A stretch of 64,000 nucleotides of DNA from Eudorina sp. 2006-703-Eu-15 (lineage: Eukaryota; Chlorophyta; Chlorophyceae; Chlamydomonadales; Volvocaceae). Below the pieces are notes generated by a model, which ran no database searches, had not been told where the DNA came from, and saw only the letters and a program-made list of their open reading frames with translations. A program made the position numbers and the translations under genes. Position 1 is the stretch's first letter; each line of letters opens with the position of its first letter. The stretch is taken from assembly GCA_003117195.1 (NCBI GenBank), contig BDSI01000039.1, positions 192,001 to 256,000 of the forward strand. Reading direction: 5' to 3'. This document shows, piece by piece, positions 9,797-56,800 of the stretch.

Positions 9797-12688
9797 TCAC
9801 AGTCCCACCAACTCGTCCCCCTTGCGCTCGAACTTGAACGACGGCCCTGACGGCATCTTGGGCATGGGAGTGGTGAGCACCTTGTCAATCATGCCGTACT
9901 CGATGGCCTGCTTGGGGTCCATCCACTTGTTGCGGGACAACTCTCGAATCACCTGCGGTCGAGGCAAGTGCCGGGCAGTGGGCCCCAATGACGTACGCGA
10001 ATTTCAGTTCAATGAAATAAACGAGACAGCACCTACGCACGGGCCACACAACGATATCATCACAGTGCTGACACAATTGGAAACTCCTCCAAGCCCAGTG
10101 AGACACCTCACCATTTCCCTGGCATCCCATCACCTACGGCCCCGACCCAGGTGATCTCCAGGCCACCGGCTCTGAAACCCGTTCGCCGGCGGGGTCCTGA
10201 AGGGGTCGGCCTCCAGTGCCCTCGCCCCATCCGACCCCCTTCTGGGCCGCACCCAGCCCAATCAGTACTCAGCACCCACCCTGTCGTACGGTTGCCCCGT
10301 GGAGTTGGACACGAGCAGCGATAGGTAGTCGCGCATGCGGACCAGCTCTCGCGACTCGATGTGCATCTCCGAGGCCTGCCCCCGGGATGCGCCCGAGGGG
10401 TGGTGCATCATCAGGATGCTGTGGGGCATCGCGAACCGGTAGCCCTGCGGGAGAGGAGCGTGTACGGCGTGTACGGCATGTGTGTCATGGCATCACTTAG
10501 CCACCAAATGCCGAGTTGAGCAGGGGGTGTGGGTTTGGACGTGTGTTTCTAGGTGGCAAGGCAGAAGCGCGTGTCATGCTGGGGGGGGCACAGCTGCATC
10601 CGGAATTTGTCCGTGGGTTTGTACGTGTGTGTACGCGTGTGTTGGCGGGATGGGTTTATGGACAGGGAGATAGGAAAAATCACGCGTGGCGTGCGGAGAC
10701 ACAGATCAGCTGAGCCCTGCATTGCCTGGTGGCTCGCATGACCCGTGGGACAATCCACATCGGACGGATGGGCAGCCATTCGGTTTGCCCGGGGGATCAG
10801 CTCCAAGCGATTGCGTGGTGGCTTGCATACCTTCCGCTACCCCCAGGCTGGCGCACCAAGCCAATGTGTGTGGGTGCAAGATTAACCCCGCACGGGATTG
10901 GATCGAGCTCCAATCCCATCGCGTCTGAAGGGCCTTGCCCACTGGCGCCGCGAGGTGCTGGCCTCGGGCCCATTGCCCCTTCCGCCACACCTCGCATCCC
11001 TGAGCCCTCCCGTCGTCATCCCTGAGCCCTCACCTTCTCGCCTCCCGTGGTCAGCAGGAAGCCGCCCATACCCAGGCACAGCCCATAGCACACGGTGGCC
11101 GTCTTGCTGCGGACGTACTGCATCGTGTCGTACAATGCGAGCGTCGGTACCACCTGGCGGGCCATAAGGCGGGGGGACGGCAGGTCGCCATCAGCCGCAT
11201 GTGTAGTACGGCACCATCGAGGTGTCTGGCAGCTGTACGGCCACCGGCCGACCGATTCACAACAGGAACCGCAGCGGAGGCGCAAACCGCAGCGACGCTT
11301 CCGAACAACCGGGACCGCTGCTGCTGTTTATGTACCTGCATGTCTTGACCAGGGAACCCCAAACCTGGCACAACGCGCACGCATAATAGGATTCTGTTGC
11401 GGTTGCTGTTGAGCTTTCCAACGGCTTGTTGCGGGCCCCTGCTTGTTTTCGTGGCCGTACTGTGAACCCTACAGACCCACACTGTGCAGGACCCAGCGCC
11501 CCTTCGCCATCCCGCGGGGCCGTAGGGGTGAGGCGGTGCCGCCCACAGGCCCCACCCGCCTTGCCGGCTGAGCGCATAACCGCTTGCGATGGCTGCGGAT
11601 GGCAAGCGGGTCCCATCCTCGCGATGGTCCAGGCCCCGCGGCTACGCGCGTTGCGCTTGAGTACAGTATACACCATATCCTGAAGACACACCGTCACCTG
11701 AGCTGCGAACAAACCCTAAGGCCCCGCAGCACCTCAGGCTCCTTAGCCCGTGTGCGGTACAGCCCTGGTATCCGGCCCGTCCGCCGGTCCACCTCCCGAC
11801 CCACCTCTCCACCCGGGCAGTTAAGCCAGTAGTAGATGCGTTTGTTGTCCAAGGAGTCCAGGTAGAGGGTCAGGGCGATCATGTTGTTGGCAACCTCGTC
11901 GGTGATGGCCTCCTTGATGAAGACCACCTTTTGGTAGGTCTGTGCGGGGGTGCGGGGCGGGGCGGGAGGGAAAGGAGGACCGCGTGTGGGGAGGAAATAT
12001 AGGAAATCGGTGGACATTTCAACCTGCGCTGCTGCCCGAGCGACGGTGTAAGGAGGGAGGGCTTCGGGGCCAGAGTGGGAGTGCAGCACCGTGCGCCGTG
12101 CCGTGGGCAGCGGGGCAGGCAAGGAAGCCCTCGGGTTGGTGGTGAGTGCGGCAGGTTCGCTTGTAGGTTAGCTCGGCAGGGAGGTGCAAGCAGAGGCTTT
12201 CTGTTGATCCTGAGCCCCATGACCAACCATCCTTAGGCAGCTGGGGCCAAGTAAATCATTGGCATCGGTGAGACGGCCCATCCGATGGGTGGTGCACATG
12301 TGCTAAGTGATTGCGTCCCCGGCACCGAGCGAGTAACATATGTAGACACATGGACTTCCCCTTTCGGCCCCTGCCGCGGGTGGCTCGCCCCTGCCGCAGC
12401 ACGACTCACGTAAGCTTCCCAAAGGTCCACCCACTCCATCTGCTTTTGACCAGGTGGCCGCACCAGCACCTTCGGTACCGACACCGGCATCATGGTGGTC
12501 ACTTTGCGCTTGGGCGCGCCCGAGCGCCTGCAAGTAAGCCACACCCAATCAGCTTACGCCTGCTTGTCATTGATGGGGCCAGTAGACGGTATGCGTCGAA
12601 CCCACTTGGCGGAGCTTATCTGCTGGTGAGTGACTTCCCAAAAGCCCTTCGGCTTGCTCCGACCTACACCAGCAACTTTGCCTGCCAT
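9797..12688 (-). CDS. CLPR2: ClpR2-like non-catalytic subunit of chloroplast Clp protease
   Basis: ClpR proteins are ClpP relatives that sit in the plastid ClpPR core without cutting. Exons: 12688-12558, 12527-12410, 11939-11805, 11153-11034, 10444-10280, 9952-9797; 274 residues. The MEWVDLWEAY block, VFIKEAITDEVANNMIALTL, LYLDSLD, RGQASEMHIESRELVRMRDY and DPKQAIEYGMIDKV fit the ClpR2 branch better than ClpP. The catalytic serine position, normally GxxASMGA, reads GLCLGMGGFLL, so Ser is Gly; a His is kept in LMMHHPSG. Exons 2-6 are firm. Exon 1 depends on a 30-base intron (12528-12557) and lacks an obvious Ser-rich transit peptide, so the true 5' end may differ. It could be another ClpR paralogue, but the WVDLW and PKVLVRPPG motifs favour ClpR2. 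Confidence 0.9.
11996..12043 (-). mobile_element. Intronic element copy, sense, ClpR2 intron 2
   Basis: Read on the minus strand it has GGGCAGCAGCGCAGGTTG, then AAATGTCCACCGATTTCC. It ends about 56 bases upstream of the 3' splice site at 11940. Confidence 0.6.
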
Positions 12689-15105: not shown

Positions 15106-15184
<79 letters not shown>

Positions 15185-18030
15185 CAGGAAAGAACCCGCC
15201 CGACCCAGCCCAGGCGTGGATATACTAAGTCCGGTGCGTGTGTTGGAACTTGTGGGACTTCTGGATGAGGGGCGAAGAAACGGCGGCATGGCAGCCCCAC
15301 ATGCGGGCGGTGTGCGAGGGGCCCTTGGGGGCCGGGTTCGGGTGTGGGTTTGGCTCGGTGGGCTGTCGGGAGCTCGGGGGGCCCGTGGGGCCGCAGGGCG
15401 CCACCGAGCAGGGACTGCTACACGCTGGGCTACCCGGTCCCCTGGACGGCTCCATGCCATACCCCGCAATCCGTCCACTCATGGACCTGTTCACCCTCAC
15501 AGCAGCCTCGTCCCCAACGACCCCGACCTCCGCCGGGCTGGGTGTGTCTGGGCTGTTTTTCTTTTTGACCCCGTCCTCCCGGGCGAACCCGCCCTCCCGC
15601 ACTACGGCTCGGGCAGCAGCGCAGCTTCGAAATGTCTACCAATTTCCTGTACGCTTTACCCCATCACGGCCCTCCCTGCCGCGCTTACACCACGGCCCTT
15701 CCCCACCCTCCCGCCCTCCCTCCCGCAGGTCCCTGCTCGAGGAAGCCGACCGGGAGGGCGATCAAGAGGCTGCTCTGATCGCCATGATGGGCGGGACACA
15801 CCCCTTGGTGGCCGTCGCCCGACAGAAGAGCGGGGGCGACATGGGGGCCTCCCCGACCGGCGTCGGGGCCCCCGCCCTGGAGCCCAGCTTCGCGTCGGCG
15901 GCTCGGAACAGCCCCGGCAGCGCCGGGCTGCCGCCGCTCGGGCAGCACCTCGTGTCACCGACGGTCCTGGCGCAGTACCTGCCGCCGCCGCAGAGCTCCA
16001 GGGGGGCCTTGGGCTCGGAGAGCGGCGGCGGGCTGGGGCCGGAGGGCAGCGGCGTTGTCGCGCGGGGTCGCTTCAGCGGCGACGGCGACGACGACGACGA
16101 GGGGGATGCGTCCGAGTCGGAGGTGGAGCCGCCGCAGGCGATACTGCCGCCCAACATTACCAGCATCTATGCGCCGCGCGAGGTGATTGGAGCAATCTGC
16201 CAGGAGGAGCGGGACGAGGCGCAGGAGGCCTTTGCGCACAAGCTGCAGGCGGCGGCGGAGGAGAGCATCAGCAAGTTGGAGGCGGCCTACCACCCGGTGC
16301 CGCCCAGCAGCGCGGCGGCGGCGGAGGGGACGTCGGAGGGCGGCATGACGGGCGTGTCGGCCGACACGGCGGCCCTGCTGCACGTCTCGCCCGCGTTCCT
16401 GAAGGCCTACAGTACGGGCACGGGCGACGGCGCGGGCACGGGCACGGGCACGGGCACGGGCGCGGGCGCGGATGCCAACGGCGGGCGGGGCAGTCCCACT
16501 TGGGACGACGACGGGCGCCCAGACTCGGGGCAGCGTCGGGACAGCGAGCGCTACAGCAGCCGCAGCAGCAGCGGGACCGGAGCCGGCGCGGGCGTCGGCA
16601 TCGGCAGCGGCAGCGGGTCCAAGCGGGAGACCACGGCGAGTGGGTACAGCCGCAGCGCGAGCGGAAGCGGCCTAGCGCAGCTACCGCCCATTGCGGCGCA
16701 GTCGTCGTTCAGCCGGCGCGAATCGGGCAGCAGCAGGGCCTCGGCCGCGGCGGCGGGCGGCACAGAGGGCCCGGCGCGGAAAGACTCCAGGGTCAGTCGA
16801 GGTTCCTCGGATGCCCCGGTCTCGGAGCCCGTGCCCGATGTGCCGTCGGAAGCGCGGCCCAGTCGGCGCGACTCGGGCCCCAGCGGTGGCTCCGGGTCCG
16901 CTGGCAGGGGCTCGGGTCCGGGGGCAGCGGCGTCGGATGTGGCGGCCTCCGAGGCGGGGCCCAGTCGGCGGGAGTCGGGGCTCGGGCGCCCGTCAGAAGC
17001 GTCGGGGGCGCCCCTGCGGCGCTCCTCGGCGTCTGAGGGGCGGGCCAGTCGGCGGGAGTCGGGGCTCGGGCGCCCGGGGTCGGATGTGTCAGCCGCGCCG
17101 GCGGGCGTGGAGGACTCGCCGAAGGCGCCGCCCAGCCGGCGGGAGTCGGAGCTGAGCAGATCGGGGGTGTCACAGGAGGCGCCCAGTCGGGGCGGGTCGG
17201 CGGCCAGCAGCGGCAGCCGACGGGGGTCGACGGGTGCCGGCGGGACGCCGAGTCGGAAGGCGTCGGCGGCCAGCGGCGCGGCGCCGTCAGCGATCTCGGT
17301 GCCTAGCCGGTGGGAGTCCTCCGTCAGCAACGCCGTCACGGACAGCCCCGGGGGGTCCGCGGCCGCGCCCGCGGGCTTCACATCCGCATCCGGGTCGGAG
17401 GCGGGGCCCAGCCGGCGGGACTCCGGGCTCAGTGCGGGCAGCGCCCGCCCGCCGCCTGCGGCGGCGGCAGCCGCACCGGCAGCGGCTGGCGGCGGCAGCA
17501 GCCCGTCCATGTCGGGCAGTGAGATGCCGGCATTTGAGCCCGCGACCGCGAGCACCTCCCGGCCGGGCAGCAGCATGTCCGGCCTGTCGATACCGCAGTC
17601 GGAGGGCGCGGGCGGGACGTCCACCAGCGGGGCGGTTCCGTCGGGAGGGGACGCGGCGTCAGGCGCCGGGTCGTCGGCCGCGCGGCGCTCCAGCAGCCCG
17701 GTGCTTCCGGAGCCGTCCCTGGGGCTGCTGCCGCTGACGCCGGTGGCGGCGCAGGCGGGCGGGGAGGGGGGCAAGGAGGGGGTGAAGCCGAGCCGGGAGA
17801 CGGGCGAGGGCGGCGAGGAGACGGAGGAGGAATCTGAGGCAGGGCCGCCGGAGGAGGAGGACGAGGAGGAGGAGGGGCAGGAGGACGACGAGGTGGAAGC
17901 GCGGGAGGCGTCTGTGTCCGGGTCGGAGGAGGAAGAGGCGAGCAGCTCGGGTAGTGAAGAGGAAGAGGAAGAGTCGGAAGAGGAGGAGGAAGAAGACGAG
18001 GAGGGGGAAGAGGAGGAAGAGGAAGAGGAG

Positions 18031-18062
<32 letters not shown>

Positions 18063-20288: not shown

Positions 20289-23200
20289 TCATGGCCTGCC
20301 GCGCGCCTCCTTGTTCCTGGCGTCCTGCATGAAGTTGGATATGGTGATGCTGTAGTTGTTGTCGCCCCAGCCTGCCACACTGACCAGCAGCTCCTGCAGG
20401 TTGAACCAGTCCAGCTGCTGCCGCTCCAGCTCCAGGCACAGCCGCGCCGCCCAGTCGGCGCGGCCGTACCAAACCTGTACGCGTGCGGCCGGGGCCGGAA
20501 ACATAGGCAGGACGGGGTCTCATCACGCGCGCCACGCGGACGGCCTGATGGTACCACACGCGCGGCACCATCAGGAGGAGGCTCCATCAGCGGGTGCCGT
20601 CGATGGCCCCGCAGGGGCCACTGTAATCTGATTCATTCAACGTGTGCAAGTGCATCTCGTGGGCCGTTTGAAGTATGAGGGTGACCCGCATCCATGCCGG
20701 ACCGCGTACCGCCCTGCTCACCACCGCGGTGTTACGTTCCGTTCCGTCTACAGAGTCTCACGCTGAACAGACACGACGACGCTCGCACGCTTGGGTACAG
20801 TGTATCCGCATGCGGGCAGTTGTTGGGCACTGCTGTGCCGCTCGCATTCCACGCGCTCCTCCTCTGCCTGCTACACAGCTAGTTGAGCTGGCTAATGGAC
20901 TATCAGGTGGACGCAGTCCTGCGACGATTACGGTAGGCGGTGAGTACCCCCCTTCGATGGGCGGTACAGTGTGGACTAAGTGGATTACGCCCCTCCTCAT
21001 CAGAGGAGTGCTTCGGCGGTCTCCCGAATGGGGCGGGTTAGCGCCCCCGGCCAGCGTCGGCCCGGCAGATATGTAACGATACACACACACACACGCTTCC
21101 CATTAAATACACACACACACGCTTTTTGCCGAACAGGAAGCTGACGCACCATCTGGGTCAGGCACCACCCGAGGACCGAGTAGTCGTACTCGCCGGCTCC
21201 GGCTTCGATCTCCTGTACACAGAAGCGCAGGCAAGAGAACCCACAAGTGAACCCAACACCCCACCCCGCGATGCGACCCTCAGGATGGCCTCAGGATGGG
21301 ACTTCGCAGCAATCCAGCCATGAAGCGAATGCCGTCCTCCGTTGCACACAGTGCCGCTGCACACAATGCCCCCGGCCCCTTGGCCTGGGCACGCCTCCCT
21401 GGCGCGCCTTGGGACGGCCCCACGCCCTTCCGCAACGGCGTTCTTAACACCGGGCTCTGCCCGCTCCCTGCCGCCCTCCCTCCCTCCCTGCCGCCCTTAA
21501 ACCTCAGTTGCGTTGCGTTAACCACGCTGCAGTGCTTCATCGCCATTCTGCGCCCCGCTGCCGCCACCCACACCACACGACCGGCTCCGGACGCCGCCTC
21601 CATGTCACACGACCGGCCCCGGACGCCGCCTCCGCACCACACGACCGGCACACCACACGACCCGCCCCGGACGCCGCCTCCGCACCTCGAGCGTCGTGTA
21701 CATGAGCTGCTTGCTGAGCTCCACCGCCCAGTCGGCCCGGCTGTGGTCCAGCAGCGTGCCCAGGATGAAGGGCACCAGCGTCTGCGAGGCGGCGCTGTCG
21801 TCGCTGGTGTCGCTGGAGTAGAGCGCGAACAGGACACGGCCCGCCGAGTCCGCCGCACCGTCCGGCACCATGGACCCGAGGATGAAGGACACGTCTGGAC
21901 CACCCAGCCGCGACGCGAAACCCCGCAGTGACGCGAGGGAAAACCGGGAAGGGGGTTACAAAGGAACCCCAGAACCAAGGGGGCATAGGAAGACATATTG
22001 GTGGAGATATTTACACTGCGCTGAAGCAGAACCAAGGGGCCAGTCACGTGAACGGACAGGCAGGTGGTGCGCATACCCAGGAGTAGCCCGGATTTGGAGA
22101 TAGAGGCTGGCAACAGCCGGGCCCCGGCGCAGCACTGCGTGGCGGGTGGGTTTTCAAGAGCGGCGCTGTCGGGGAAGGCGCGGCCGGGCCAGCGGCATGC
22201 GTGGGGTGGTCCGGCCACGCCACAACCGCAAGCCGTACAATGATACATCCGACAGTACGGCAGGTCAATACACCGGGATTGCGGTCCAGGGCGTGCTCCC
22301 CGCGAGCAGGCCCCCCCCCACGAAACTCCATTTGGGCGGCGACGTGCCGCCGTCGGGCAGTGCGTCTTGCATGTCGAGACAGTCCTCGTACTCCCTTTGG
22401 AAGAGTGTCCCACGCGAAGCCCTGACCTCGCACCCTGCACTCCTTCCGTCCCGCATTGCGCAAGCCCCGCGCCCTGCAGCCGCTATCGCTCAAGCCGCGG
22501 GTAACCCCTCCACTGGTGTGCTCTGTCGGCGGAGGCGTGGTGCTCCCCTGCCTGCCCGCAAGACCGATGTACACGCGCACGTTGCAGGGCGCGAGCACGG
22601 TGCGAGCTGTCCACACCCAGCCCACCCGCGTAACGCTCTCGGGTATGCCGCCCTCTTCTCCGCCACCCGCTATCAGCCCTCCCAGGTGTGACTTTCTGGG
22701 GCCTAAACTGCGAGCTGATACGAGGGAACATGTCCGCGAAACATGTCACAAGGTGCTTCCAGTTGCATGGCGGGCCCCGCCTGCAATGCGAGTCGCATGT
22801 GGCATGTCGTACCATAGCAGTCGAGCATCTTGCCCCGGCCGCTGTCAGTGTCGCGAGCCACGAGCATGAACTTGAGCAGGTCTTGCGCCTCCGAAAGGCT
22901 GCCCAACTCGATCATCCTGTGTGGAAAGATGCAGATTAGTTCACAGCCCACAGCCCTGACAAAGGGTTTCCAACTGGAGGGCCTTTGCGTGCGTGCGTGG
23001 GCGGCGCAACGCTAGGGATACGCGGCGCGGCCGTGAAGATGAGATTTGTCATCTCCGATTCAAAAGCTAGCAGCCGCATTCCAGTATCGGCCTTTACAAC
23101 GTGCCTGTTGAGGACCCTCCCGGCGAGCGCGTAGTCCAGTGAGTCTGACTTGGCACCCGCCGCGGCGGGAGCAGCACCATTGCTCGGGCTGGTGCCGTTC

Positions 23201-40640: not shown

Positions 40641-40671
<31 letters not shown>

Positions 40672-41360
40672 GGGCAGACAGACAGACAGACAGCGGTCCG
40701 GCGGAGACCAGGCAGCGGGGCCGCCGTACAGATAACGGCCGGGAAGGGGGAGGAGAGGAGAGGAGAGGAGAGGAGAGGGCGCTGCGCACTTCACAACAAC
40801 CAACTGCGGCAACTCACCCGCGGCCCTCTTCGTCCACCCCACCCAGCCCCATTCTGGGCCCGAGCCCGTGCCGGTGCCAGCGCCAATGCCAGGGCTTCCC
40901 CGGGGGGGGGGCAGCGATGACCCGGGCTGGGCTGGGCTGGGCTGGGCTGGGCTGGGCTGGGCTGGGACAGCCCCCCCCCGCCCCCGCCTCCAACCGCCTC
41001 TTCCCCGGCCCGGCCCTTCCCCCCCAGCCGTCCGCCCCCCCATACACACACGCACCTGCGACAGCTCCTGCAGCAGCCGCCCCTCGCCCGTCCACAGCCC
41101 CCGGGAGGTGACCCGCACCCGGCAGCTCAGGCCGTACGCCCCGGCCCCCGCGCGGATGACGTCCACACCCGCCACCACCACACCCTCAGTCGACATGGTC
41201 GCGCGCATGTCCAGCTCCATCTCCTGAGAGGGGTGTTGGGGGGGGGGTACAGGGTTGTTTCGCGATTTCGCTGTCTTTATTGACAAAAAGGGGGGTATAG
41301 GACATTGGTAGACTGGGGTCGAGGGAGGGGAGACAGAAGGGAGGACGGATTAGATTGGCG

Positions 41361-41398
<38 letters not shown>

Positions 41399-44300: not shown

Positions 44301-44576
44301 CCCCGCACCCCGCACCCCCCCGCCCGCACCCGTGTGCACGATGGTCCCCTCGTCACTTCGCATGATGAGCCCACAGCAGTCGGGAATGGAGTGGGTCACC
44401 CGGATGGGCTCGATCCTTTTGGGGGGGAGGGAGGGGATGGGGAGGGGGGTTTAGGAAATTGGTAGACATATAGGGGGGGGAGAGAGGAGGAGCGGGAGCG
44501 GGAGGGGAGCGGGGGAGGGGTGTAGGAAATTGGTAGAGGGGTCGAAGCTGCTGCTGTTGCAGTTGGGAGAGGGGGG

Positions 44577-44625
<49 letters not shown>

Positions 44626-47238
44626 AGAGAGATACAGCGGAGCACCGGAGAGCGTTGGGCGCTCCAGTGAAGCGATGGCGGTGGTGGTGGTGGTGGAAGG
44701 CGGCTGGTGGTGGTGGTGGTGGTGGTGGGGTGGTGGTGGTGGAAGGCGGCTGGTGGTGGTGGTGGTGGGTGGTGGTGGTGGAAGGCGGCTGGTGGTGGTG
44801 GTGGGGTGGTGGTGGTGGAAGGCGGCTGGTGGTGGTGGTGGTGGGGTGGTGGTCCGCACTCACTCGAAGGGTCCGGCCTGGAAGCGCTTCCGCATCTCAA
44901 ACGTCTTGAACCTCTTCTCATCCCACAGGCTGTACTCGTTAAGCCGCTTCTTGACCAGCTCCATCACGAAGGAGGAGGCGTAGATGGGCGTGCTGGGGTC
45001 CAGGGCGGGAACCACCTGTGCATGGCGGGGAGGGGCGGGGAGGGGGTTGGGTAGGGGTGGGGAGGGGGTTAAGAGATAAACAGGGGAGGGGGTACAAGAA
45101 ACCGGTATAGAAACTTGGTCGGGTGGGGTGGGGTGCGGTGGGGTGGGGTGGGTTCGCACCTCTTGACCACTTCCTGCAACCTAGGTCCCCCCTCACCCCT
45201 CCCTGGAGATCCCAGGGCACTGTACCGGACGCCAATCGGCCTTTTGCCCTGGCAGCAGCGCAGCTTCATTCCGTCTACCCCTTTCCCCTAACCCCACCAC
45301 CCCACCCCTCCCTCTTAGCGGAGCGGATCCTCCCCGTCCCCCCCTCCCGCAACCCTCCCTCCCCCCCAGGCCCCCCACAAACCCCACACACCCCTCTCCA
45401 ACCCCACCCGCCCCCACCCCCTCGCACCCACCCAGGGCAGCGCCCCAATGTGGTCCTCGTGGCCGTGGGTGATGATGAGCGCCTCTATGCGGTCCTTCCA
45501 CTGGGCCAGGAAGTCCGTGTCGGGCAGGATCTTCTGCATACCCAGGTCGGAGAAGCTGGGGGAGGGGTGGGGGGAGTAGGGGGTATAGGAAATTGGTAGG
45601 AACCGGTAGGCATTGGGGGTGGGGGTGGGGGTGTATAGGAAATTGGTAGACATATTTTTACTGCGCTGCTGCCAGAGCGAAATGGGGTGGGGGTGGGGGG
45701 ACGGGGACGGGTTGGGGGGGGGTTCGGGGCGCGCAGCGGTTAGGAACAGAACGGCATACGGCTGAAGGTACGTGGCCGGAGGATGTGCCCGAGGGCGCTG
45801 ACAGGGCACCCGGGGAGGGGCTGCCTAGCGAGCCAAACCCCCGCCTCTGGCTCTGCTGCGGACGATCCGGGTGTGTTTGACGGTGTGGGTGTGGGTTTGA
45901 CGGTGTGGGTGCGGGTGTGGGTTCGGTGGTGACGGTGTGGGTGTGGGTGCAGGGAAACGGGTGTAGCTCCCGGCCGTGTCCACCCCAGTGCCGCCCGCCC
46001 CCGGCCCGCTCTGTGACGGAGCCCCAGTTGTACCCACCATCAGGGCCGCCTCGCCCCCAAACCCCGGCCCCGCCGGGAGCCCTGCCGCACCCCCACATCC
46101 GCATCGTTACGACACACCTACACCCCACCCAGCAACGCCTCTCCCCAACCCAGCATCACCCCGCCCGGCCACACACACATCCCCGCCCTCCCCCCTCCGC
46201 CCTCCCCTCCCTTCCCGGCCCGTCTGTCGTACTCACTCGGGAAACATAAGCCCCGCGTCGATGACGACGTAGCGGTCCCGCACCCCCACCATCATGCAGT
46301 TCATGCCGATCTCGCCCAGGCCGCCGATGGGCAGGATGCGCAGCGGGGGACCGGTGCCGGGGGGCGGCCCCGGGAAGGGCTTGAAGTGCCGCTTGGCGAT
46401 GGCGCTGCCCAGGTGCTCCTGGCCATCGCTGGACTTGTACTCCTTCAGCCGCATGCCCGACTCGCTGACGTAGGTACGGGGCCGCCGGTTGGAGCCCCCG
46501 CCTGGAAAGGGAGGATAGGGGTGGGGTGGGGTGGGGTAGGGGTGGGGGTTAAATTGAAGTAAGAGATAAACCCTAGAAAGACACGCGCAGGCAGAGGTGA
46601 GGTGGGGTGGCGGGTGGCAGGGTTGGAGGGGTGGCGGGGGGGGGGGAGGAGGGGGAGAGGAGGAGGGGGAGGGCGGGGGCGAGGCGCGGACGGGGCGGCG
46701 GGCGGGGGAATGCGGCAGCGCGGGCGGGGGAGGACCGCCCGAACCGATTGCAGCAGCGGGGGAGGCAGAATTGGTGGGGGAGGGGGGGCCGGCCCTGCAC
46801 TGGTTACGTGCAGTCCCCCGGGAGCACCAGGGCGGTTGGAATGGGAGGGCTTCCAGACGTCGTTGCATTGCGGCTTGTGGGCAGGAGTTCCTCGCCGCGC
46901 CGGGTGATTTCGGACAGCAGCAAGGGTTTTACACTGAGCCCGTCCCGTTCGCTGTCGAAGCTGGTTGCGGATATGCCGCATGCGCACATTTTGCCGTGGA
47001 AATAGAACTGCAGGCTGCAGGGTGACATGTACGTACAAACGTCGGCTGACCGCCACAATGGGCAACAAAGCTCACCCTGTCCCCGGCCGCCCCCGCCTTT
47101 GTCGGAGCGCGGCCGCCATCGCTCCGACTTATCCGCCTGTGCAATAATATACAGCTTACTGCGCCCATGCTTCCGGAAAGCCGCCGGACCTGGCGCTAGG
47201 GCCGTCGTTCCGAAAGTAAGAGCTCCGGATAGAGACAT
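39184..47238 (-). CDS. RNJ: Chloroplast ribonuclease J
   Basis: RNase J is a metallo-beta-lactamase/beta-CASP nuclease that matures and surveys plastid RNA. Thirteen exons (47238-47076, 46501-46237, 45555-45432, 45015-44864, 44415-44330, 43920-43778, 43363-43013, 42710-42584, 42236-42097, 41896-41714, 41223-41056, 40477-40261, 39818-39184) agree in phase and give 917 residues. The N terminus ([20 protein letters not shown]) fits a plastid transit peptide. Motifs in order: [13 protein letters not shown], the metal-binding [54 protein letters not shown] and PVHGEYAFL, all as expected. The C-terminal 230 residues are low-complexity, Ala/Pro-rich with [14 protein letters not shown] saw no convincing GT-1 domain like that of land-plant RNJ. 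The last intron begins AG|GCAAGT, a GC-AG intron chosen because only it keeps phase. Several introns carry the shared intronic element. Confidence 0.93.
40257..40262 (-). other. GC-AG splice donor of the last ribonuclease J intron
   Basis: On the minus strand the exon ends CCAG and the intron starts GCAAGT, matching the usual consensus of the minor GC-AG class. The nearby GTGTGA would shift the frame of the last exon. Confidence 0.6.
40618..40693. repeat. GACA microsatellite in a ribonuclease J intron
   Basis: Imperfect (GACA)n with GGCAGACAGACG interruptions. Confidence 0.8.
40918..40970. repeat. GGGCT pentanucleotide repeat in a ribonuclease J intron
   Basis: About ten copies of GGGCT in tandem, followed by C-runs. 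Confidence 0.9.
41359..41420. repeat. GACA microsatellite in a ribonuclease J intron
   Basis: (GACA)n in two blocks separated by GATTGGCG. Confidence 0.85.
42311..42362 (-). mobile_element. Intronic element copy, sense, ribonuclease J
   Basis: On the minus strand it reads TCTGACAGCAGCGCAGTTTG, then GATATGTCGACCAATTTTTCC, about 74 bases upstream of the 3' splice site at 42237. A T-rich tract (complement of TTAAATTGAAAAAA, 42276-42300) follows. Confidence 0.65.
42501..42526. promoter_or_regulatory. Perfect 26-base palindrome with a CACGTG core
   Basis: TGATGAACGTCAC is followed directly by its exact reverse complement, inside a ribonuclease J intron. The centre contains the G-box hexamer CACGTG and two ACGT cores. 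It may be a bZIP or bHLH binding site or a hairpin; function is unproven. Confidence 0.5.
44155..44332. repeat. CGCACCCC-rich tandem tract in a ribonuclease J intron
   Basis: Repeated CCCGCACCCCATTC and CCGCACCCC units with runs of up to 16 C. The minus strand (transcript sense) is correspondingly G-rich and could form G-quadruplexes. Confidence 0.75.
44450..44473 (-). mobile_element. Intronic element partial copy, sense, ribonuclease J
   Basis: The minus strand reads ATATGTCTACCAATTTCC, 34 bases upstream of the 3' splice site at 44416. A second partial copy at 44521-44562 has CTCTACCAATTTCC preceded by CAGCAGCAGCTTCGA. Confidence 0.55.
44577..44622. repeat. GGCA microsatellite
   Basis: About eleven copies of GGCA (read as AGGC) in a ribonuclease J intron. 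Confidence 0.95.
44674..44850. repeat. GGT-rich minisatellite, four units of about 44 bases
   Basis: Runs of GGT alternate with GGAAGGCGGCT four times. It produces Gly/Val/Trp-rich spurious frames on the plus strand. Confidence 0.9.
45247..45290 (+). mobile_element. Intronic element copy, antisense, ribonuclease J
   Basis: The plus strand reads CTGGCAGCAGCGCAGCTTC then ATTCCGTCTACCCCTTTCC. The gene is on the minus strand, so this copy is inverted relative to transcription. Confidence 0.5.
45632..45682 (-). mobile_element. Intronic element, best-preserved copy, sense, ribonuclease J
   Basis: The minus strand reads CTCTGGCAGCAGCGCAGTAA, then AAATATGTCTACCAATTTCC, then TATACACC. It sits about 76 bases upstream of the 3' splice site at 45556. 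A shorter copy (ATTGGTAGG) lies at 45583-45600. Confidence 0.65.
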
Positions 47239-48193
47239 GTTAATGGATCAGGGCTAAGCAGGCAAGAACATTATCGCAATATGGCACACCCCGGTGGATG
47301 ACGTCCCCTGCAGTGGTATCCGCGTTCACCACAAACACTACTGAAAAGATATGGTCTGCACGCGGGACACCATCCATGTTACAAAGACAAATTGGAACAT
47401 CGTTACTGGTAAGTTTACGGAAAGGACGACATGACCGTACATATTTCCTTGCAGAGGTAGGAATTGAGGACGAGCCTCAAAAACGGAGAAGTATTGCGAA
47501 GCAAGCATGTGTATAGCATGACTTTTATGTTAATACAGTAAAAAATGTGCATCCCCTTTGAACTCTTTTTTTAAACGCTTACATGAAGTTTAGACTTTAT
47601 GGAATGAAACTGAAGTATGTATTGCACGGGTTTAGCATGATTGGGGACGGGGTGCGCGATGTGGCCTTGGAGTCGGTTATGTTTCGCTGCTAGATTTCAC
47701 AGACAGCCTTGCTGGAAATCAACACGTGAGGGAAATACACCGCAACGGCTGGTCCTATCTCAGATTTGAGGTGCGCGGCGGGCTATTCGTTTTCCGTAGA
47801 CGAGACTTCGGAGGAATAGGGAAGCCACGTACCCAACCTATACGACATCGAATGAAGTTCCTTGAAGTCGCCGCGCGCATAGCAATTGCGGAGACGACCG
47901 CTTTCGGACGGGAAGTTATGAAACGGCACTCACCAGCCGTTAACTGAACTTCTGCGACGACTGCCCTGAACTGTATGCCCCAAGAGCTCAGGATGCCCTC
48001 TAAAACTTTTGCGCCTTTGCTTGGTCATGTAACTGTCAGGAGTCCCAAGCCTCAGAGCGCGCTTTGCGCCGAACGCATCCGGCATCGCGGCTCCCACCCG
48101 TCGTCCACGTGGCCCCCCTAATACCCCCCCTGCCCCTCCCCCCGCAACCTTCCCTCAGTCGGCGGCCCCAGGACCCTATCCCAACACCTTCCG
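47239..48193. promoter_or_regulatory. Putative bidirectional promoter, ribonuclease J / armadillo-like gene
   Basis: 955 bases lie between divergent starts, notably AT-rich at 47380-47640. A 73-residue frame at 47726-47947 has no motif and is not called. Confidence 0.4.
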
Positions 48194-50798
48194 ATGGCTC
48201 CCACCGGCGACGGCGCCACCGCAACAGGGCGCGGCAGCGCCGAATTCGCCCCGGCTGCAGCTCCCGGCGCCTCCCCCGCCCGCACCGACACCGCACTAGC
48301 ACCGCTCTCCCCCTTTTCCTCCGCAGCACCGCTCTCCCCCGCCCCCTCCACCTCCACCTCCGCCGCCGCCGCCGCGGCGTCTCCGCCCTCTCCCGCCGCT
48401 CCCGCCGCCGCCGCCGCCGCGCTGCCGCCCAACCCCGCGCCGGGCAGCGTCAAAGCCGCGCTGTCCTTCGTGAAGCGCATCACCACCAACTCCCCCGCCC
48501 GGAAGCCGCTCCCCGTCATCAAAACCGAACCGACCGCGGCGGGGGGTGCTGACGCAGACGGCGGCGCGTCGGGCGCCGGCGGCGGCGGCGACGCCGCCGC
48601 CGCCGCCGACACGCCGCCGCCGGCGGTCGTCACAGAGACGGAGGTCATCGAGACGGCGGCCCCGGGCTCCGCCATTGCCCAGGTGGCGTTCGAGGACCCC
48701 CTGGAGTCGATCGTGGCGCCGCCCTCCCTGGAGCGCAGTACGGTGGTGGACTATGTGGCGGCGGCTGAGAACTGGCTGATGACGGATCGTATGTTGGAGC
48801 AGCACGAGGAGTTCGTGGCGAGGGGGCTGCTCATGGTGCGGCGGGGGGAGCGGGGTGGGGTGGGGTGGGGTGGGGTGGGGGGGAGGAAGTTGGTTGACAG
48901 TTGGCAAGGGGGAAGGGAAGAAGGGGTGAAGTTGACGCAGTGCGGATAGGTAAGGTGAGGGCGAGGGCGAGGGGCAGCGGCAGGGGGCGGAGGGGCGGGC
49001 CGAGGGAGGGGAAATTTGGTTAAGACATATTGAAAGGGGGGCGGTCGGTGGGTGGTGCACAGGCGGGGGGGGAGGGGGCTGCATGGGCCGAGGTGGCTGT
49101 GCCGACACTGAGGGGGTCATGAGAGTGAGTGTGCGGCTGGTGGGGGCGTGACACGGACAGCCCCGACCGCTCCCCTTCCCCGCCCCCTCCCCCTCCCCCT
49201 CCCGCCGCCCCCTCCCCCTCCCCCTCCCCCTCCCGCCGCCCCCTCCCCGCTCCCCTTCCCCGCCCCCCTCCCCCCCTCCCTAACCCCCTCTCTCCCCCTC
49301 CCGCCCTCCCTCCCCGCTCCCCTTCCCCGCCCCCCTCCCCCCCTCCCTCCTTCAACTTAATCCCCTCTCTCCCCCTCCCGCCCTCCCTCCCCTCCCCCCT
49401 TCCCCGCCGCCCTTCCCCCCCCCTCCCTCCCTCCCGCCCCCCTCCCCCGCCCCTCAGATCCGCAACGTGGTCCGCAACGAGCCCCGGTATGCGGCGCAGG
49501 AGTCGGAGAACTGGCTGCCGGTGGTGCGGGACAGCCTCAACAGCAAACACGGGTGGGTGGAGAGGGGGGGGTGTGGGGGTGGGGGTGGGTGTGGGGGTGG
49601 GGGAACAGAGCGCGGCCAACCAGGGCAATGCACCCTTGAGGTCCCCCTATAGGCCCACACGCCGCTCCAACCCGCCGGGTGCCTTCCTCCCGTCCCAGGC
49701 ATCCCGCCCGGAGGGTGCCTCCCCAACACACACACACACCCCGCCCCCAATTCCCTGTCCCCCCCCGCCCCCAGCAGTATGAATATGTCTACCCATTCCC
49801 TATACCCCGCCCCTCCTCCCCCTTCCCCCCTGGGCAGTTCCTTATTTACGCCCCCCCCGTCCCCCGCTGTCCTCCTCTGCCGCAGTCTGATCCGCGCCGC
49901 CGCCGCCAGCACCCTGGCCGCCTTCCTGGCCAGCACCCCGGGGCGGGAGGCCGTACACCGAGATGCGGCAGTGCTGCCCAAGCTGATGCAGATGCTCATG
50001 TGAGGGGGGGGGAGCCGGGGGCTGAATTGAAAAAAAGAAATAAATCCGAGGAACGAACCCGGGCACACCCAGCATGACTCAGTATACTTACGTGGGGCGG
50101 TACCTGCATAGCAATGGAAAGATAGAGACCGCGCGCGGGCGCGTGGCGGCGCGGCCGCGCTGCCGCCGGTGCAGTAGCAAGCAAAATACGAACCCGGCCC
50201 AACCCGGAAAGGACAGATACTTTACCGACCTGTGGTGGTAGGAGGAGTAGCCGCGCCACGAGCGATGTCCAGGGCCATGGCGATGCAGGGAGGGAAGCCG
50301 AGGAACGGAGTGCGTGGGCGCGGCGTGAGGGTGGCAACGACAGTTCGTAACGACAAAAAGAAACATCAAAAGAAAGCAGTATGCGAGAATGGCGGGGCGG
50401 CAGCGCGGCGCGAAAGAGGACGGGGCAGGCTAGGGGGAGTGGGATATGGGACGGGAGACGGTACGACATGTACGGCATGTACGACAGGGGGAGCAAACAT
50501 GGCCCAGGGGCGCGGATACGGACGACCGGGTGGCGGGCCAAGTTCGGGGTGTGGCTCCCCACCGTGCCCGGTCGTAGCGGGGCAGCCCCGGAGCTGGGGG
50601 CGGGCCGGGGGGGGGGGGCCGGCGGGGGGAGGGATCGACATGGGGGGGGTTATGATAATTCGGTAGAGGGGGCCTGGAGGGAAATGGGAGAGGGAGGCGG
50701 CCCATGTGCGGTGCGTGTGTGTGTATGGGGAAACGCGTGTGCGTGGATGAGTTTTGATGGCGGACGGACGGACGGCCAGGCAGGCAGGCAGGCAGGGG

Positions 50799-50829
<31 letters not shown>

Positions 50830-53800
50830 GGGCAGGGGGCAGGGGGGCAGGGGGGCAGGGGGGCACGGATACACATTTTCCGCAGGTGACAGGACAAAGC
50901 GAACCCCCTCCCCCCTTACGCCAACACACACATTAGCACACAACCAAACTCCCCCTCTCCTCCCCCCCCTCCCCCCGCCCCACCCCCACACACAGGACCG
51001 GCCTCATGTCCGGCGGCGACAACAACGACACGCAGTACGCCTGCCTGGCCCTCTCCAACCTCGCCCTCAGCGCCACCAACCGAAGCCCGCTCCTGCGGTA
51101 CGGTGTACTGCAGCGCGCCGCCGACGTGTTCAAAGCGGCCATCCGCTACTTCGACAACCCCCCACACGGCCACGGCCATGGTCACGGACACGGCGGCGGG
51201 GGCGGCGGCGGCGGCGGAGGGGGTGTGGGAGGCGGCGGCGGAGGCGCGAGGCTGAGCGCGACGGGATTCGCCAACGCCGGCGGGGGGGCCGGGGGCGGGG
51301 GCGGGGGCGGCAACCGCGGAGGTGGTGGCGGGAAGGGCGGCGGCGGAGGCGGAGGCGGCGGGTCGGGTTGTGGCGGCGGGGGTGTCCGCCGGGGTAGTCC
51401 GGTTCTGAAGGCGGCGACCTACATGGCGGCCCTCATGACCAGCTGGGCGGTGGAGCCGCAGGGGCGGGTGCAGCTGCTGCAGGTGGGGAGCCAGGGGGTG
51501 GGGAGGTTGGGCGCGTGTGTAATAGATAACTGAGCCGCGAGAAGCGAAGTCCGGGCGGGTGTTAGCAAGGAGAAAAGCTGAGCCGCGAACAAGCAGAACC
51601 GTGTCCAGCAATGCAACCGACGACTGAGACCGAGACCAGAGTTACCAATATGCCCGGGCGAAGTACGTCGACCATAAGTAGTCCCAAGGTGGTGTAGTCC
51701 GTGATGCTGTAGCGCCCCGTATCGTTGTCGAGCGCCGGTGGGGTGTGTGTGTGTTGTGTGTATGTGCGTGTGTGTGTAAGGAGGGGTATAGGTTATTGGT
51801 AGACAAATTTATATTGCGCTGAGCGAATATCCGATAGAGACTCGACTGTGTAAGGAGGGGGGGCAACGGGGAGGTATAGGAAATTAGGACGGGGAAGGGG
51901 GGCGGGTGTACAGCACATCGGTAGGTCCAGGGGGGGCCTGAACGTGCGGATATGGAGTGGGACCCCCCCGCACGTGCCTGACCCTCCTCTCCGCGCCCGC
52001 AGTGTTTGAATATGTCTACCAATTTCCTGCATCCCTCCCCTCCCCTTTAAATACTGTACGTCTACCCCTCCCCTCCCCCCCCTCCCCCCCTCCCCTCCCT
52101 TCCTCTCCCCCCGCCCGCCCGCCCGCCGCAGCACGAGATCCCCCGCCTGGCCGGCGAGCTGCACGAGCGCAGCTGCACCGCCCTGGGCGAGGAGTTCCCC
52201 TCAGCCGCCGACTGGCCCTCCTCGCGGACACCTCCTCGGCGGTGGAGCTGCTGATGGAGATCGCGGAGGCGGGGCCGCTGGGCTGGGAGGGGGAGCGGGA
52301 GGTGAGGGGGCGGGCAGGGGGGGGGGCGGGGCGGTGGAGGGGATGTGGGAAGTTAAGCGCACCGATGGAGAGGTGGGTAGGCGGGGGGTTTGAGGGAGGT
52401 AGGCCGGCGGGGGAGGGGAGGGGGTAGGCCGGGGGGGGGCGTGAGGGGGTAGGCCGGCAGGGGAGGGGAGGGGTAGGCCGGGGGGGGCGTCAGGGGGTAG
52501 GCCGGCAGGGGAGGGGAGGGGGTAGGCCCCTCCTCCCCCTCCCAGTGTACATATGTCTACCAATGTCCTATATCCCCTTCCCCCTCCCCCGTCCAATCCA
52601 TCCCCAGGCCTGGTCACAGGATTCAGAGCACCAGGGCCCGGGGGCCCCGCACCTGCACCCGGGGGGGTCGTCGGCGGCGGCGGCGCTGCGCGGCGTGTCG
52701 TTCGTGGAGGGCGCCAGTCGGAGCATGGCCCGCGCCTCCGCCGCCATGAACTCGCTGCACCGCCTGGTGGATCTGGAGGCGGCCTCCCCGGGGGGCACCG
52801 CCACGGGGGCGCCGCCGGCGGGGGGCGGCGGAGGGGGGATGGGCGGCCTGGTCAGTCGGAGCGTGTCGAGGAAGCAGCTCGGTAGGTTTTGCAGGAGGGA
52901 GGGGTTTTGTGTTTAGAAAACAAGCCCGCCCGACCGAACCCAGGCGCAGATATACTTCAGATATAACCTGGGGTTGTGTGTGTTTGGGGGGGGGAGAGAG
53001 GGGGAGGGTAGGAGAAGTTGTTTGTTTCGGGGGAGGGTGTGATGGGGGAGCTGCAGGGGGGAGGGTAGGGCAAGGCAAGAGGGGTTAAATTGAAAAAAAG
53101 AAATAAACCCGAAGAACGATCCCGGGCACACCCAGCATAACGCAGTATACGTGGTGTGGTATACGTGGTATACGTGGTGTGGTAACGCAGTATACTTACG
53201 TGGGGCGGTACCTGCATAGCAACGGAAAGATAGAGACCGCGCGCGGGCGCGTGGCGGCGCGGCCGCGCTGCATAGCAACGGAAAGATAGAGACCGCGCGC
53301 GGGCGCGTGGCGGCGCGGCCGCGCTGCATAGCAACGGAAAGATAGAGACCGCGCGCGGGCGCGTGGCGGCGCGGCCGCGCTGCCGCCGGTGCAATAGCAA
53401 GCAAAAAGCGAACCCGACCCAACCCGGAAAGGACAGATACTTCACCGACCTGTGGTGGTAGGAGGAGTAGCCGCGCCCCGAGCGATGTCCGAGGTCATGG
53501 CGATGCACAGAGGGAAGCCGAGGAACGGAGTGCGTGGGCGCGGCGTGAGGGTGGCCACGACAGTACGTAACTACAAAAAGAAACATCAAAAAAAGCAGTA
53601 TGCGAGAACGGCGGGGCGGCAGCGCGGCGCGAAAGAGGACGGGGCGGACGAGGGGGAGCGGGATATGGGACGGGAGGCCGTACGACATGTACGGCATGTA
53701 CGACAGGGGGAGCAAGCATGGGGCAGGGACGCGGAGACGGACGGCCGGGTGGCGGGCCACGTTCGGGATATGGCTAGGGGGGAAGGGGGTTGGACAGGGG

Positions 53801-56800
53801 GTTGGGGGGGGCGTGGCAGGGTGACAGGTCCAGACAGAGCCGACCGACCCCCCGCCCCACAGGGTGAGGTAATGGAGGGCGTACTCGCGCCTGGGAGGGC
53901 GGAGTACTCGCTCAGCGGTGTCCAGGGCAGCCGTCGCGCTGGTGGGCGGGGAGCTGATGATTAGCGGCTGGGGGGTTAAATTGAAAAAGGAAAATATATA
54001 TATACAAGCTGCGCTGCTGCCAGAGCAACAGTCCTGGGGCGGGCGGGGGGAGGGTCATATGAAATTGGTGGACATGGGGGGCGGCGGGGGGCTCCAGGCG
54101 AATGCGGGGCGAACGCTGACGTGGTGGGTGTCCGTGAGGGTGCCGGAGGAGGGGCGCGCCGGCCTAGCTGGGGTCATTCTGACACCCCGCTCCTGCCCCC
54201 CGCCTGCCCCGGGGCTTGCCCCAACCCTCTTTCTTCCCCCCGCCCGGCAGCATCTCAAATCTCGACAGTGGGCAGCCTCTCCCCACCCGCCGGCAGCGCC
54301 TCGCAAGGCCCCGCCGCCGCCATCACCTCCCCCGCCTCCCCCACCGCCGCCGGCGCCGCCACCACGACCACCATCACCGCCACCACCACCAGCACCGTCC
54401 CCAGCACCACCAGTCTCTCCGCGCTGCTCTCCCCGCGCGACGTACCCGGCAGCCTCGGCACCTCGCGGGCCCCCGGCAAGCTGCTACACGGCCGGGCCTC
54501 CCAGCCCGGCCTGCCGCTGACGCCCTCCTCGCCCCTGACCGCCCTCGGCTCCGTCACCTCCGGCCAGCTGATCTCGCCCTTCTCCCAGCAGCAGCAGCAG
54601 CAGCAGCAGCGGCAGGCGACCCTCTCGGACACGGGCTTCCAGGCGCTGGGGTCGGGGGGCGCTGGGGGGGGCCTGGGGTCGCCCGCCACCTCGCCGCACC
54701 AGCAGCACCCGCAGCAGCAGGCGCAGGCGCAGTCCTCCCCGGTGTCCCCGGGCGGGAGCATGCTGGGGCTGCACTTCTCGGCCTCGATCTTCATGGAGGG
54801 TGAGAGGTGCCAGCGGGGGGGGGAGAGAGGTCCAAAGGGGGAGGGCGTGAGGACAAGCGACGAGGGAGGGGGAGTACGGATTGAAGACAGACAGCCCTAG
54901 ACCCACCGCAAAAACCCCAACCCGCGTCACGAATGTGACTCGACGGACCTCGTGAGTGGTACGATGTCCCCCGTTCGTTCCTGGTGCCCCTGTCCCTGTC
55001 CGCGTTCCCTCCCTGGCCGCGCCCCTCACCCCCGTGCCCCTCACCCCCCCCCCATCCCCCTCATCCCCCTCACCCCCAGCCGCGGCTGCGACGGGCACCG
55101 GCCGCGGCACCACCGGCGATGAGGACGCGGCGGGCGGCCGCGGCCGCAGCGTCTCGGCCTTCCTGAGCAGCCTGCACTCGCACTCGTCCTCCTCCAAGAA
55201 CCTGCGACTGCCGTCCGTGATGGTGAGTGGCCGGGGCCGGGGCGGGGGGAGGCGGGGGCGGGGGCGGCCGGGAGGGTAATTGGTTGGAAACTGCCCAGAC
55301 TCGAGCGGGCGAGAGGGGGACAACCGCAGAGAGGAGGACCCGGTGTGCGGAAGAGTACGCCTGGCGTCTGTGAGGTTGGAGCGACCCAGTGCGGCGTTGG
55401 GAAGAACCCGACCGTTGTGCGTCCGTCCGTCCGTCCGTCCGTACGTACGTCCGTACGTACGTCCACGGCCGCACGTGCGAGTGGCCTTGCGTGATCCGTA
55501 GCCCTGTGAATCCAGTCCGAATCCAGTCCGAATCCAGTCCGAATCCAGTCCGAATCCAGTCCGAATCCAGTCCGAATCCAGTCCGAACTCAATCGTGTGT
55601 GCGTGTTTAGAGAAGAGACCCGTGTGTGTGTGTGTGTGTGTGTGATTTCCCGATCTCCGTGCGGCCGCGCAGAGCGGCAAGGTCGCCGCCTCGGCCGAGT
55701 CGGCGCCGCTGGCGGGCAGCAGCTCTCGCAGCATCAGCGGCAGCCCCCTGGCGGTCGGTCGAGTGCAGGAGGCCCACCTGCCCTTCCACCTGGTGCGGCC
55801 CATCCCCACCATATCGGCGTCCACAGGTGGGGGAGGGGCGGTGTGGGGGGTGGGGATATGGGGCGAGAGGGGCCGAGGGGGCGCGCGTGTGTATGTCCAG
55901 CGGTCTGGGAGGGTCTGGGAGGGTCTGGGAGGGTCTGGGAGGGTCTGGGAGGGTCTGGGGAGGTCTGCCCATGCACATGATGGTACCTGGCAAATGGGGG
56001 CGGGCCACGACGCGCGCGCGTTGGAGCCCCTGGTGCGGTTGTGTGGGGGTATGGCAGGGACGGTTCACCTGGCCCGGGGGACGGGGGGAGGGTAATGGTG
56101 GCTTCCAAGCTCCGGGAACCCCCTCCTGGAGCTGCCCAGGGGGTGGGGGGCAGGGCCTGGGCCTGGGTGGCGCCAGGGGGTGGGGGGCAGGGCCTGGGCC
56201 TGGGTGGCGCCAGGGGTTGGGGGGCAGGGCCTGGGCCTGGGTGGCGCCAGGGGTTGGGGGGCAGGGCCTGGGCCTGGGTGGCGCCAGGGGGTGGGGGGCA
56301 GGGCCTGGGCCTGGGTGGCGCCAGGGGCTGGGGGGCAGGGCCTGGGCCTGGGTGGCGCCAGGGGGTGGGGGGCAGGGCCTGGGCCTGGGTGGCGCCAGGG
56401 GTTGGGGGGCAGGGCCTGGGCCTGGGTGGCGCCAGGGGGTGGGGGCAGGGCCTGGGCCTGGGTGGCGCCAGGGGGTGGGGGCAGGGCCTGGGCCTGGGTG
56501 GCGCCAGGGGTTGGGGGGCAGGGCCTGGGCCTGGGTGGCGCCAGGGGGTGGGGGGCAGGGCCTGGGCCTGGGTGGCGCCAGGGAGTGGGGTAGTCGACGG
56601 GCACTTGCGGGGACTCGTCCGGCGGGGTCAGATGGGGTGAGGGCAGCTGGGTGGGGCGGAGGGGGCGGGCGTAAGAGCGACGTCCCTCGGGCCCCTGTCT
56701 GCTTGGCCCCGCAGGCAAGGTCTCCCGCATCAACGCCGCCTACGGCCAGGTGGCGAACTCCCGGCAGCCCAGCAACAGCGGGGTGCACCCGCTGCACACC

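What the first reader, a model, noticed from the sequence alone, without database searches (positions are those of the whole stretch)
11996..54078. A short interspersed element sits near the 3' end of many introns in unrelated genes
At least ten introns of five genes (ClpR2, coiled-coil protein, 326-residue protein, ribonuclease J, armadillo-like protein) contain the core AATATGTCTACCAATTTCC, usually preceded by CTGGCAGCAGCGCAG and followed by TATACC. Sense copies: 11996, 15608, 21986, 42311, 44450, 45632, 49774, 51998, 52543. All nine lie 31-100 bases upstream of the acceptor. Antisense copies: 45247, 51786, 53985. A fixed position and mostly fixed orientation in unrelated genes is what introner-like elements (intron-generating transposons) would give; a SINE-like repeat with a useful splicing signal is the alternative. 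The internal GCAG just before the core could even be a decoy 3' splice site.
Basis: partly seen in the sequence, partly recalled or inferred. Interest (0 to 1): 0.85.

Follow-up and report, generated by a model that had tools for sequence, protein, structure and literature searches.

The report
Jumping element beside intron ends
In this green alga a non-coding, retrotransposon-like sequence has pasted thousands of mostly tiny copies into cytosine-rich stretches next to exons, so it looks like an intron-making element but is better explained as one that lands inside existing introns.

Summary
The repeat is real. Its core is the 3' end of a non-coding interspersed element, about 1.18 kb at its longest: 5,195 genome matches at up to 3 mismatches, against 19 for the reversed pattern. 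Copies share the 3' end (TCTACCAATTTCCTATACCCC), are 5'-truncated at many points, and carry duplicated C-rich target sites of roughly 10-17 bases (permutation 0 of 5,000). These are marks of target-primed retroposition. They are not introners: element-bearing introns resemble each other only at the element's end (430 of 1,326 pairs at the acceptor, 5 of 1,326 at the donor), and no element spans an intron (0 of 82). Copies that were not the search target lie in introns (57 of 60). Sense copies point at the acceptor and antisense copies at the donor, with a median gap of 81 bases in both. C-rich tracts are distributed alike, about 15 times denser in introns than between genes. Target choice explains location and direction. 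A twofold sense excess is unexplained. The core is not specially conserved, so a splicing role is unsupported but open. The enzyme that moves it was not found. Best filed as a C-tract-targeting variant of non-autonomous retroposon.

The parts
11997..12043 (-). element copy, sense, in intron 11940-12463 of the Clp protease gene
   Evidence: profile hit model 326-373; core 62 from acceptor; PF00574 in the predicted protein
15607..15652 (+). element copy, sense, in intron 15036-15728
   Evidence: profile hit 328-373; core 81 from acceptor
21981..22016 (-). diverged element copy, sense, probably in an intron that the gene model missed
   Evidence: 26.8 bits; sequence read by eye
41295..41320 (-). 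core-only copy, sense, in ribonuclease J intron 41224-41713
   Evidence: 14.0 bits, 76 from acceptor
42310..42393 (-). element copy, sense, in ribonuclease J intron 42237-42583
   Evidence: profile hit 296-375; 82 from acceptor
42936..42960 (+). element copy, antisense, in ribonuclease J intron 42711-43012, 3' end 58 from the donor
   Evidence: 37.6 bits
44450..44475 (-). core-only copy, sense, in ribonuclease J intron 44416-44863
   Evidence: 28.4 bits, 38 from acceptor
44520..44560 (-). second sense copy in the same intron
   Evidence: 26.0 bits, 109 from acceptor
45201..45292 (+). element copy, antisense, in ribonuclease J intron 45016-45431, 3' end 145 from the donor
   Evidence: profile hit 287-374; 37.1 bits
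45582..45606 (-). core-only copy, sense, in ribonuclease J intron 45556-46236
   Evidence: 22.8 bits, 32 from acceptor
45632..45681 (-). element copy, sense, same intron, with a 16-base C-rich target-site duplication
   Evidence: profile hit 325-374; 82 from acceptor; duplication
48885..48903 (-). weak core-like match, antisense, in intron 48836-49457, 49 from the donor
   Evidence: 11.2 bits
49774..49807 (+). element copy, sense, in intron 49553-49885
   Evidence: profile hit 342-375; 85 from acceptor
51783..51850 (-). element copy, antisense, in the intron that starts at 51483; 11-base target-site duplication CCCCTCCTTAC
   Evidence: profile hit 302-376; duplication; 308 from the donor
52003..52035 (+). 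element copy, sense, same intron; acceptor at 52131 by eye (about 104), 220 by the gene model
   Evidence: 45.6 bits; sequence
52543..52576 (+). element copy, sense, in intron 52302-52607
   Evidence: 46.6 bits, 39 from acceptor; listed with 5' and 3' flanks
53996..54034 (-). element piece without the core, antisense, in an intron of the gene at 48027-56830
   Evidence: profile hit 320-358, E 7.4e-4
54060..54078 (-). weak core, antisense, 5 mismatches
   Evidence: under 6 bits
298..316 (+). possible decayed copy outside modelled genes, 4 mismatches
   Evidence: under 6 bits

Best explanation
The repeat is the 3' end of a non-coding, non-autonomous retroposon that spreads by target-primed reverse transcription into C-rich tracts. 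Shown here: a fixed 3' end, many different 5' truncation points, target-site duplications that begin at the element's terminal CCCC, C-rich flanks on both sides, and a position and direction in introns that follow the C-rich tracts (C-rich before acceptors, G-rich after donors). Inferred: an endonuclease nicks the G-rich strand at a G run, the RNA's terminal CCCC pairs with that GGGG end and primes first-strand synthesis, the enzyme usually falls off within about 100 bases, and the second cut 10-17 bases away makes the duplication. Such tracts are about 15 times denser in introns than between genes, so insertions collect in introns, pointing at the nearest exon: sense ahead of acceptors, antisense behind donors. 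The enzyme would come from a reverse-transcriptase element that I did not identify. The introns were there first.
For: Core: 5,195 genome matches at up to 3 mismatches, 19 for the reversed pattern. A 19-mer 95 bases upstream of the core: 180 against 18, so only about 3 in 100 copies reach that far. Long copies share the 3' end with 5' ends from -799 to about +350. Target-site duplications: 87 of 92 listed copies tested (5 tandem units dropped), mean match 8.39 against 6.39 (s.d. 0.15) for swapped flanks, 0 of 5,000 permutations as high; 33 with score 10 or more against 6.0 expected. Flanks are 55% C (5') and 62% C (3') over 20 bases. Median distance from the 3' end to the faced exon is 81 in both orientations (61 sense, 31 antisense intron records); C-tract positions in copy-free introns have medians 63 and 105. 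Tract density in copy-free random blocks: 2.1% of intron strand-bases against 0.14% outside modelled genes, ratio 15. Copies that were not search targets: 57 of 60 in introns, 11 times the rate outside modelled genes; tract density predicts an intron share of 0.90 (random blocks) to 0.96 (all sets).
Against: The sense excess (61 to 31) exceeds tract availability (2,351 to 2,676 positions; p = 2e-4). No reverse-transcriptase hit lies within about 25 kb of a listed copy (compared by eye), though only 150 of 1,052 candidates were scored and the copy lists are capped. The 80 kb of random blocks hold no copy although the genome mean predicts about 2.3 and they are 30% intron. Tract density in copy-bearing loci includes the elements' own flanks, so only the random-block figure (two blocks) is free of circularity. 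Gene models are ab initio and checked by homology in one gene only.
Confidence: 0.85

Rival explanations
1. Introner-like element: each insertion of the repeat creates a new spliceosomal intron, which is why copies sit at a fixed place in introns of unrelated genes.
For: Many copies in introns of unrelated genes, mostly in sense, close to the acceptor.
Against: Among 52 introns with only sense copies, 430 of 1,326 pairs match at the acceptor end but 5 of 1,326 at the donor end, near the rate of copy-free introns (24 of 10,153). 0 of 82 elements have both ends within 60 bases of the splice sites, and median coverage of the intron is 11%. Duplications flank the element inside the intron. A third of intron records are antisense, at the other end of the intron.
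Confidence: 0.03
2. Splicing exaptation: the element is scattered more widely, but copies near acceptors are kept because the core supplies a branch point and the duplicated C tract a polypyrimidine tract.
For: Sense excess over tract availability. In 39 introns with a sense core within 100 bases of the acceptor, the acceptor is the first AG after the core in 35, an AG stands within 14 bases upstream of the core in 30, and a YTRAY motif follows the core in only 4. So a branch point upstream would put the element's own CAG first in line.
Against: The core diverges 5.6% from consensus against 7.4% for the 250 bases upstream, within the spread of other 19-base windows (0.6% to 13.7%); sense and antisense copies do not differ (4.2% and 3.5%). 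Antisense copies show the same spacing to donors, where the core can have no such role. The core has no good match to YTRAY (by eye).
Confidence: 0.1
3. Ordinary retroposon with random insertion; only intronic copies near exons survived selection.
For: It is a retroposon by its structure; the absence of copies from modelled exons fits selection.
Against: Sequence outside modelled genes, where selection should be weakest, holds 3 of 60 copies although it is 93 of 249 kb of the intron-plus-outside sequence examined. Flanks on both sides are C-rich at the insertion point.
Confidence: 0.02

Closest known systems
Non-LTR (LINE) and SINE retroposons of green algae, such as SINEX-1 to SINEX-6_CR with RandI/Dualen or L1 tails (PMC3747384, passages seen)
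   Same: Non-coding, interspersed, shared 3' end, 5' truncation, target-site duplications.
   Different: Table passages of that paper list (A)n, (ATT)n, (CTTT)n, (CA)n and similar 3' repeats for green-algal SINEs and LINEs; no C-run end appears in the passages I saw. Here the 3' end is TATACCCC running into the duplicated site. No tRNA head found. No LINE with this tail identified.
Zepp and Zepp-like LINEs of green algae (PMC8226300, passages seen)
   Same: The passage describes target preference plus frequent 5' truncation that leaves mostly 3' ends.
   Different: Those target their own copies and build centromere-like clusters; this element is dispersed through gene introns.
Introners (PMC9860276, passages seen)
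   Same: Many related sequences in introns of unrelated genes.
   Different: Introners are whole introns whose ends are the element's ends or recruited next to it; here the element is a small insert in otherwise unrelated introns. Volvox, Chlamydomonas and Eudorina are not mentioned in the main text.

Membership tests
Introner | Whole introns in non-homologous genes resemble each other at both ends | tested here: not met
   430 of 1,326 acceptor-end pairs but 5 of 1,326 donor-end pairs among 52 sense-only introns
Introner | Element ends coincide with or adjoin the intron ends | tested here: not met
   0 of 82 copies with both ends within 60 bases of the splice sites
Introner | Intron absent at the same position in relatives | not testable with these tools
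   The genome has no relatives in the held set
Target-primed (non-LTR type) retroposon copy | Common 3' end with variable 5' truncation | tested here: met
Target-primed (non-LTR type) retroposon copy | Target-site duplications of variable length | tested here: met
   0 of 5,000 flank permutations as high
Target-primed (non-LTR type) retroposon copy | A reverse-transcriptase element with the same 3' end in the genome | tested here: inconclusive
   RVT_1 is abundant (1,052 candidates, 150 scored) but none of the scored hits lies near a listed copy; 3' ends of those elements could not be fetched
SINE | Head derived from tRNA, 5S or 7SL RNA with an internal pol III promoter | tested here: not met
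   No tRNA in six loci; no Rfam match over its gathering score in eight source entries. A promoter as such was not tested.
SINE | Short, non-coding, high copy number | tested here: met
   5,195 core matches; no long frame in the 3' 1.2 kb of five copies; the longest form, 1.18 kb, is long for a SINE
DNA transposon (MITE) | Two fixed ends with terminal inverted repeats | tested here: not met
   5' ends vary from copy to copy; inverted repeats were not searched for separately
Penelope-like element | RT with GIY-YIG endonuclease, pseudo-LTRs | not tested
   Considered only because L051 carries a 66-base direct repeat

The most novel reading that the evidence does not exclude
A retroposon whose terminal C run primes on G runs and so homes to the pyrimidine tracts of introns, and which on landing rebuilds the 3' end of the intron: it brings an AG, then the only candidate branch-point adenines, then a duplicated C tract, so that thousands of introns now use a transposon-borne branch point.
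Probability: 0.2. Interest if true: 0.8.

Novelty: new variant of a known kind. Interest (0 to 1): 0.5.

Why it matters
It shows how an element can mimic an introner (fixed place, mostly fixed direction, unrelated genes) purely through target choice, so position and orientation alone should not be taken as proof of intron gain. It also offers a natural experiment with thousands of insertions tens of bases from splice sites, the region where mammalian transposons are described as hazardous (PMC3088655, listing and start of abstract only), to test how far such insertions are tolerated and whether they change branch-point use.

Tried and rejected
Tried and dropped: Rfam for the element: all matches far below gathering scores. 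tRNA search: none. Long reading frames in the 3' 1.2 kb: none, so no coding part seen. Walking upstream: three long copies share one 5' boundary at about -800 and no gene appears beyond it in the 1.6 kb fetched for one of them. Reverse-transcriptase partner by coordinates: none near. Self-seeding (an insertion attracts the next): 11 extra copies in 40.5 kb of introns that hold the ascertained copy against 22 in 49.5 kb of other introns, p = 0.22, not supported. Core conserved by selection: not supported. Decoy CAG eroded in sense copies: the opposite trend, 1 of 105 changed sites in sense and 6 of 63 in antisense, p = 0.012 on small numbers. First gene-finder settings over-predicted small exons and were replaced; one earlier attempt failed to run. 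Literature: ten searches answered; none of the listed titles or abstract starts describes a retroposon that targets pyrimidine tracts of introns; most subscription journals and all preprints are outside that library.

Rows dropped: nine of the first 68 loci as overlapping others (L001, L016, L027, L030, L032-L036); five tandem units of L031 from the duplication test; locus L031 from the rate counts; L047 from the flank list because it was the query. The weight matrix did not score the long copies in L051, L055 and L066. One of the 82 copies in the coverage count (L054) extends beyond its modelled intron.

Full report
Observation. A weight matrix built from the 3' 47 columns separates copies cleanly from noise: 123 copies of at least 6 bits against 1 in the reversed sequence over 330 kb. 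The whole assembly (181.2 Mb, 3,033 contigs) holds 587 perfect cores (reversed control 0) and 5,195 at up to 3 mismatches (control 19), nearly equal on both strands.

Organism. The ribonuclease J protein of the window is 83-85% identical to those of Volvox africanus, Pleodorina starrii, Gonium pectorale and Chlamydomonas schloesseri, so this is a volvocine alga.

Anatomy. Searching with the flank of one copy showed that the core ends a longer element. Copies share the 3' end ...AATATGTCTACCAATTTCCTATACCCC and begin at many different points. Three copies (L047, L051 and one in contig 193) begin at the same place about 800 bases above the 376-base part, which suggests a full length near 1.18 kb. 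No long reading frame was seen in the 3' 1.2 kb of five copies, no tRNA in six loci, and no Rfam match over its gathering score. Truncation is extreme: a 19-mer 95 bases above the core has 180 matches (control 18) against 5,195 for the core. A 19-mer still further up has 231 against a control of 160 and is uninformative at 3 mismatches; 33 of its listed matches have at most one.

Insertion marks. For 87 copies the bases before the 5' end match the bases after the 3' end far better than swapped flanks do (8.39 against 6.39, s.d. 0.15; 0 of 5,000 permutations). The match often starts at the terminal CCCC of the element and is 10-17 bases long in the clear cases. The signal holds for long copies (34) and short copies (53) alone. 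Both flanks are C-rich (55% and 62% C over 20 bases). This is what target-primed reverse transcription leaves when a terminal C run pairs with a G run.

Context. A two-strand hidden Markov gene finder was trained on the window, 80 kb of random blocks and the fetched loci. In the ribonuclease J gene 10 of 12 junctions lie inside ungapped alignment blocks against six algal proteins, and Pfam finds the expected domains in that protein and in the Clp protease (two other predicted proteins gave no family). In the fetched loci 102 of 106 copies lie in modelled introns, 70 sense and 32 antisense; in the window 15 of 17. Leaving out the copies that were the search targets, 57 of 60 are intronic, 11 times the rate outside modelled genes.

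Direction. One record per intron and orientation gives 61 sense and 31 antisense. Sense copies end a median 81 bases before the acceptor; antisense copies end a median 81 bases from the donor. Uniform placement would put 11.3 of 61 sense copies within 100 bases of the acceptor (36 seen) and 6.3 of 31 antisense copies within 100 of the donor (18 seen). So in 86 of 92 records the element's 3' end lies nearer to the exon it faces than to the other one. In copy-free introns C-rich tracts on the matching strand have the same distribution (medians 63 and 105), because introns here are G-rich after the donor and C-rich before the acceptor. In the random blocks, which hold no copies, such tracts cover 2.1% of intron strand-bases and 0.14% of bases outside modelled genes.

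Not introners. Introns with only sense copies resemble one another at the acceptor end in 430 of 1,326 pairs and at the donor end in 5 of 1,326, against 24 of 10,153 for copy-free introns. Those with only antisense copies show the reverse: 75 of 231 donor pairs, 2 of 231 acceptor pairs. No element has both ends near the splice sites (0 of 82).

Splicing role. The case for one is the sense excess (p = 2e-4 against tract availability) and the AG pattern: in 35 of 39 sense copies within 100 bases, the acceptor is the first AG after the core, while an AG stands just upstream of the core in 30. An upstream branch point would then meet the element's own CAG first. Against it, the core has not been kept better than the rest of the element, and antisense copies are equally close to donors. 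The C-rich gap is also poor in AG for plain reasons of composition. I therefore leave it as an open possibility.

Weak points. Gene models lack RNA support. The random sample is only 80 kb with no copies (about 2.3 expected). The partner enzyme is unknown: of 1,052 candidate reverse-transcriptase places 150 were scored, and none of those lies within about 25 kb of a listed copy (by eye), but 3' ends could not be fetched. The sense excess is unexplained.

Verdict. A real, abundant, 5'-truncated non-autonomous retroposon with a preference for C-rich tracts that places it beside exons. It works like a LINE-mobilised SINE, but SINE membership is not established. New variant of a known kind.

Noticed in passing
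L031 1459-1728 (contig 3, about 1723230-1723501): Seven cores at about 42-base spacing within one modelled intron, a tandem array that grew after insertion.
   Followed up: partly
window 2340-2890: Two G-rich minisatellites with units of roughly 40 and 30 bases, seen by eye.
   Followed up: no
L051 (contig 8): A 66-base direct repeat, 88% alike, lies at the 5' boundary and again about 837 bases downstream in this long copy, perhaps an insertion next to an older copy or a pseudo-LTR.
   Followed up: partly
copies listed with starts at 326-328: A second subfamily with ...CGGACCGTTGCTCTGG in place of ...CGGATATTCGCTCTGG upstream of the CAG, so some '326' starts are alignment ends rather than truncation points.
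   Followed up: no
introns of the window, random blocks and loci: Introns are G-rich after the donor and C-rich before the acceptor even without copies (175 introns).
   Followed up: partly
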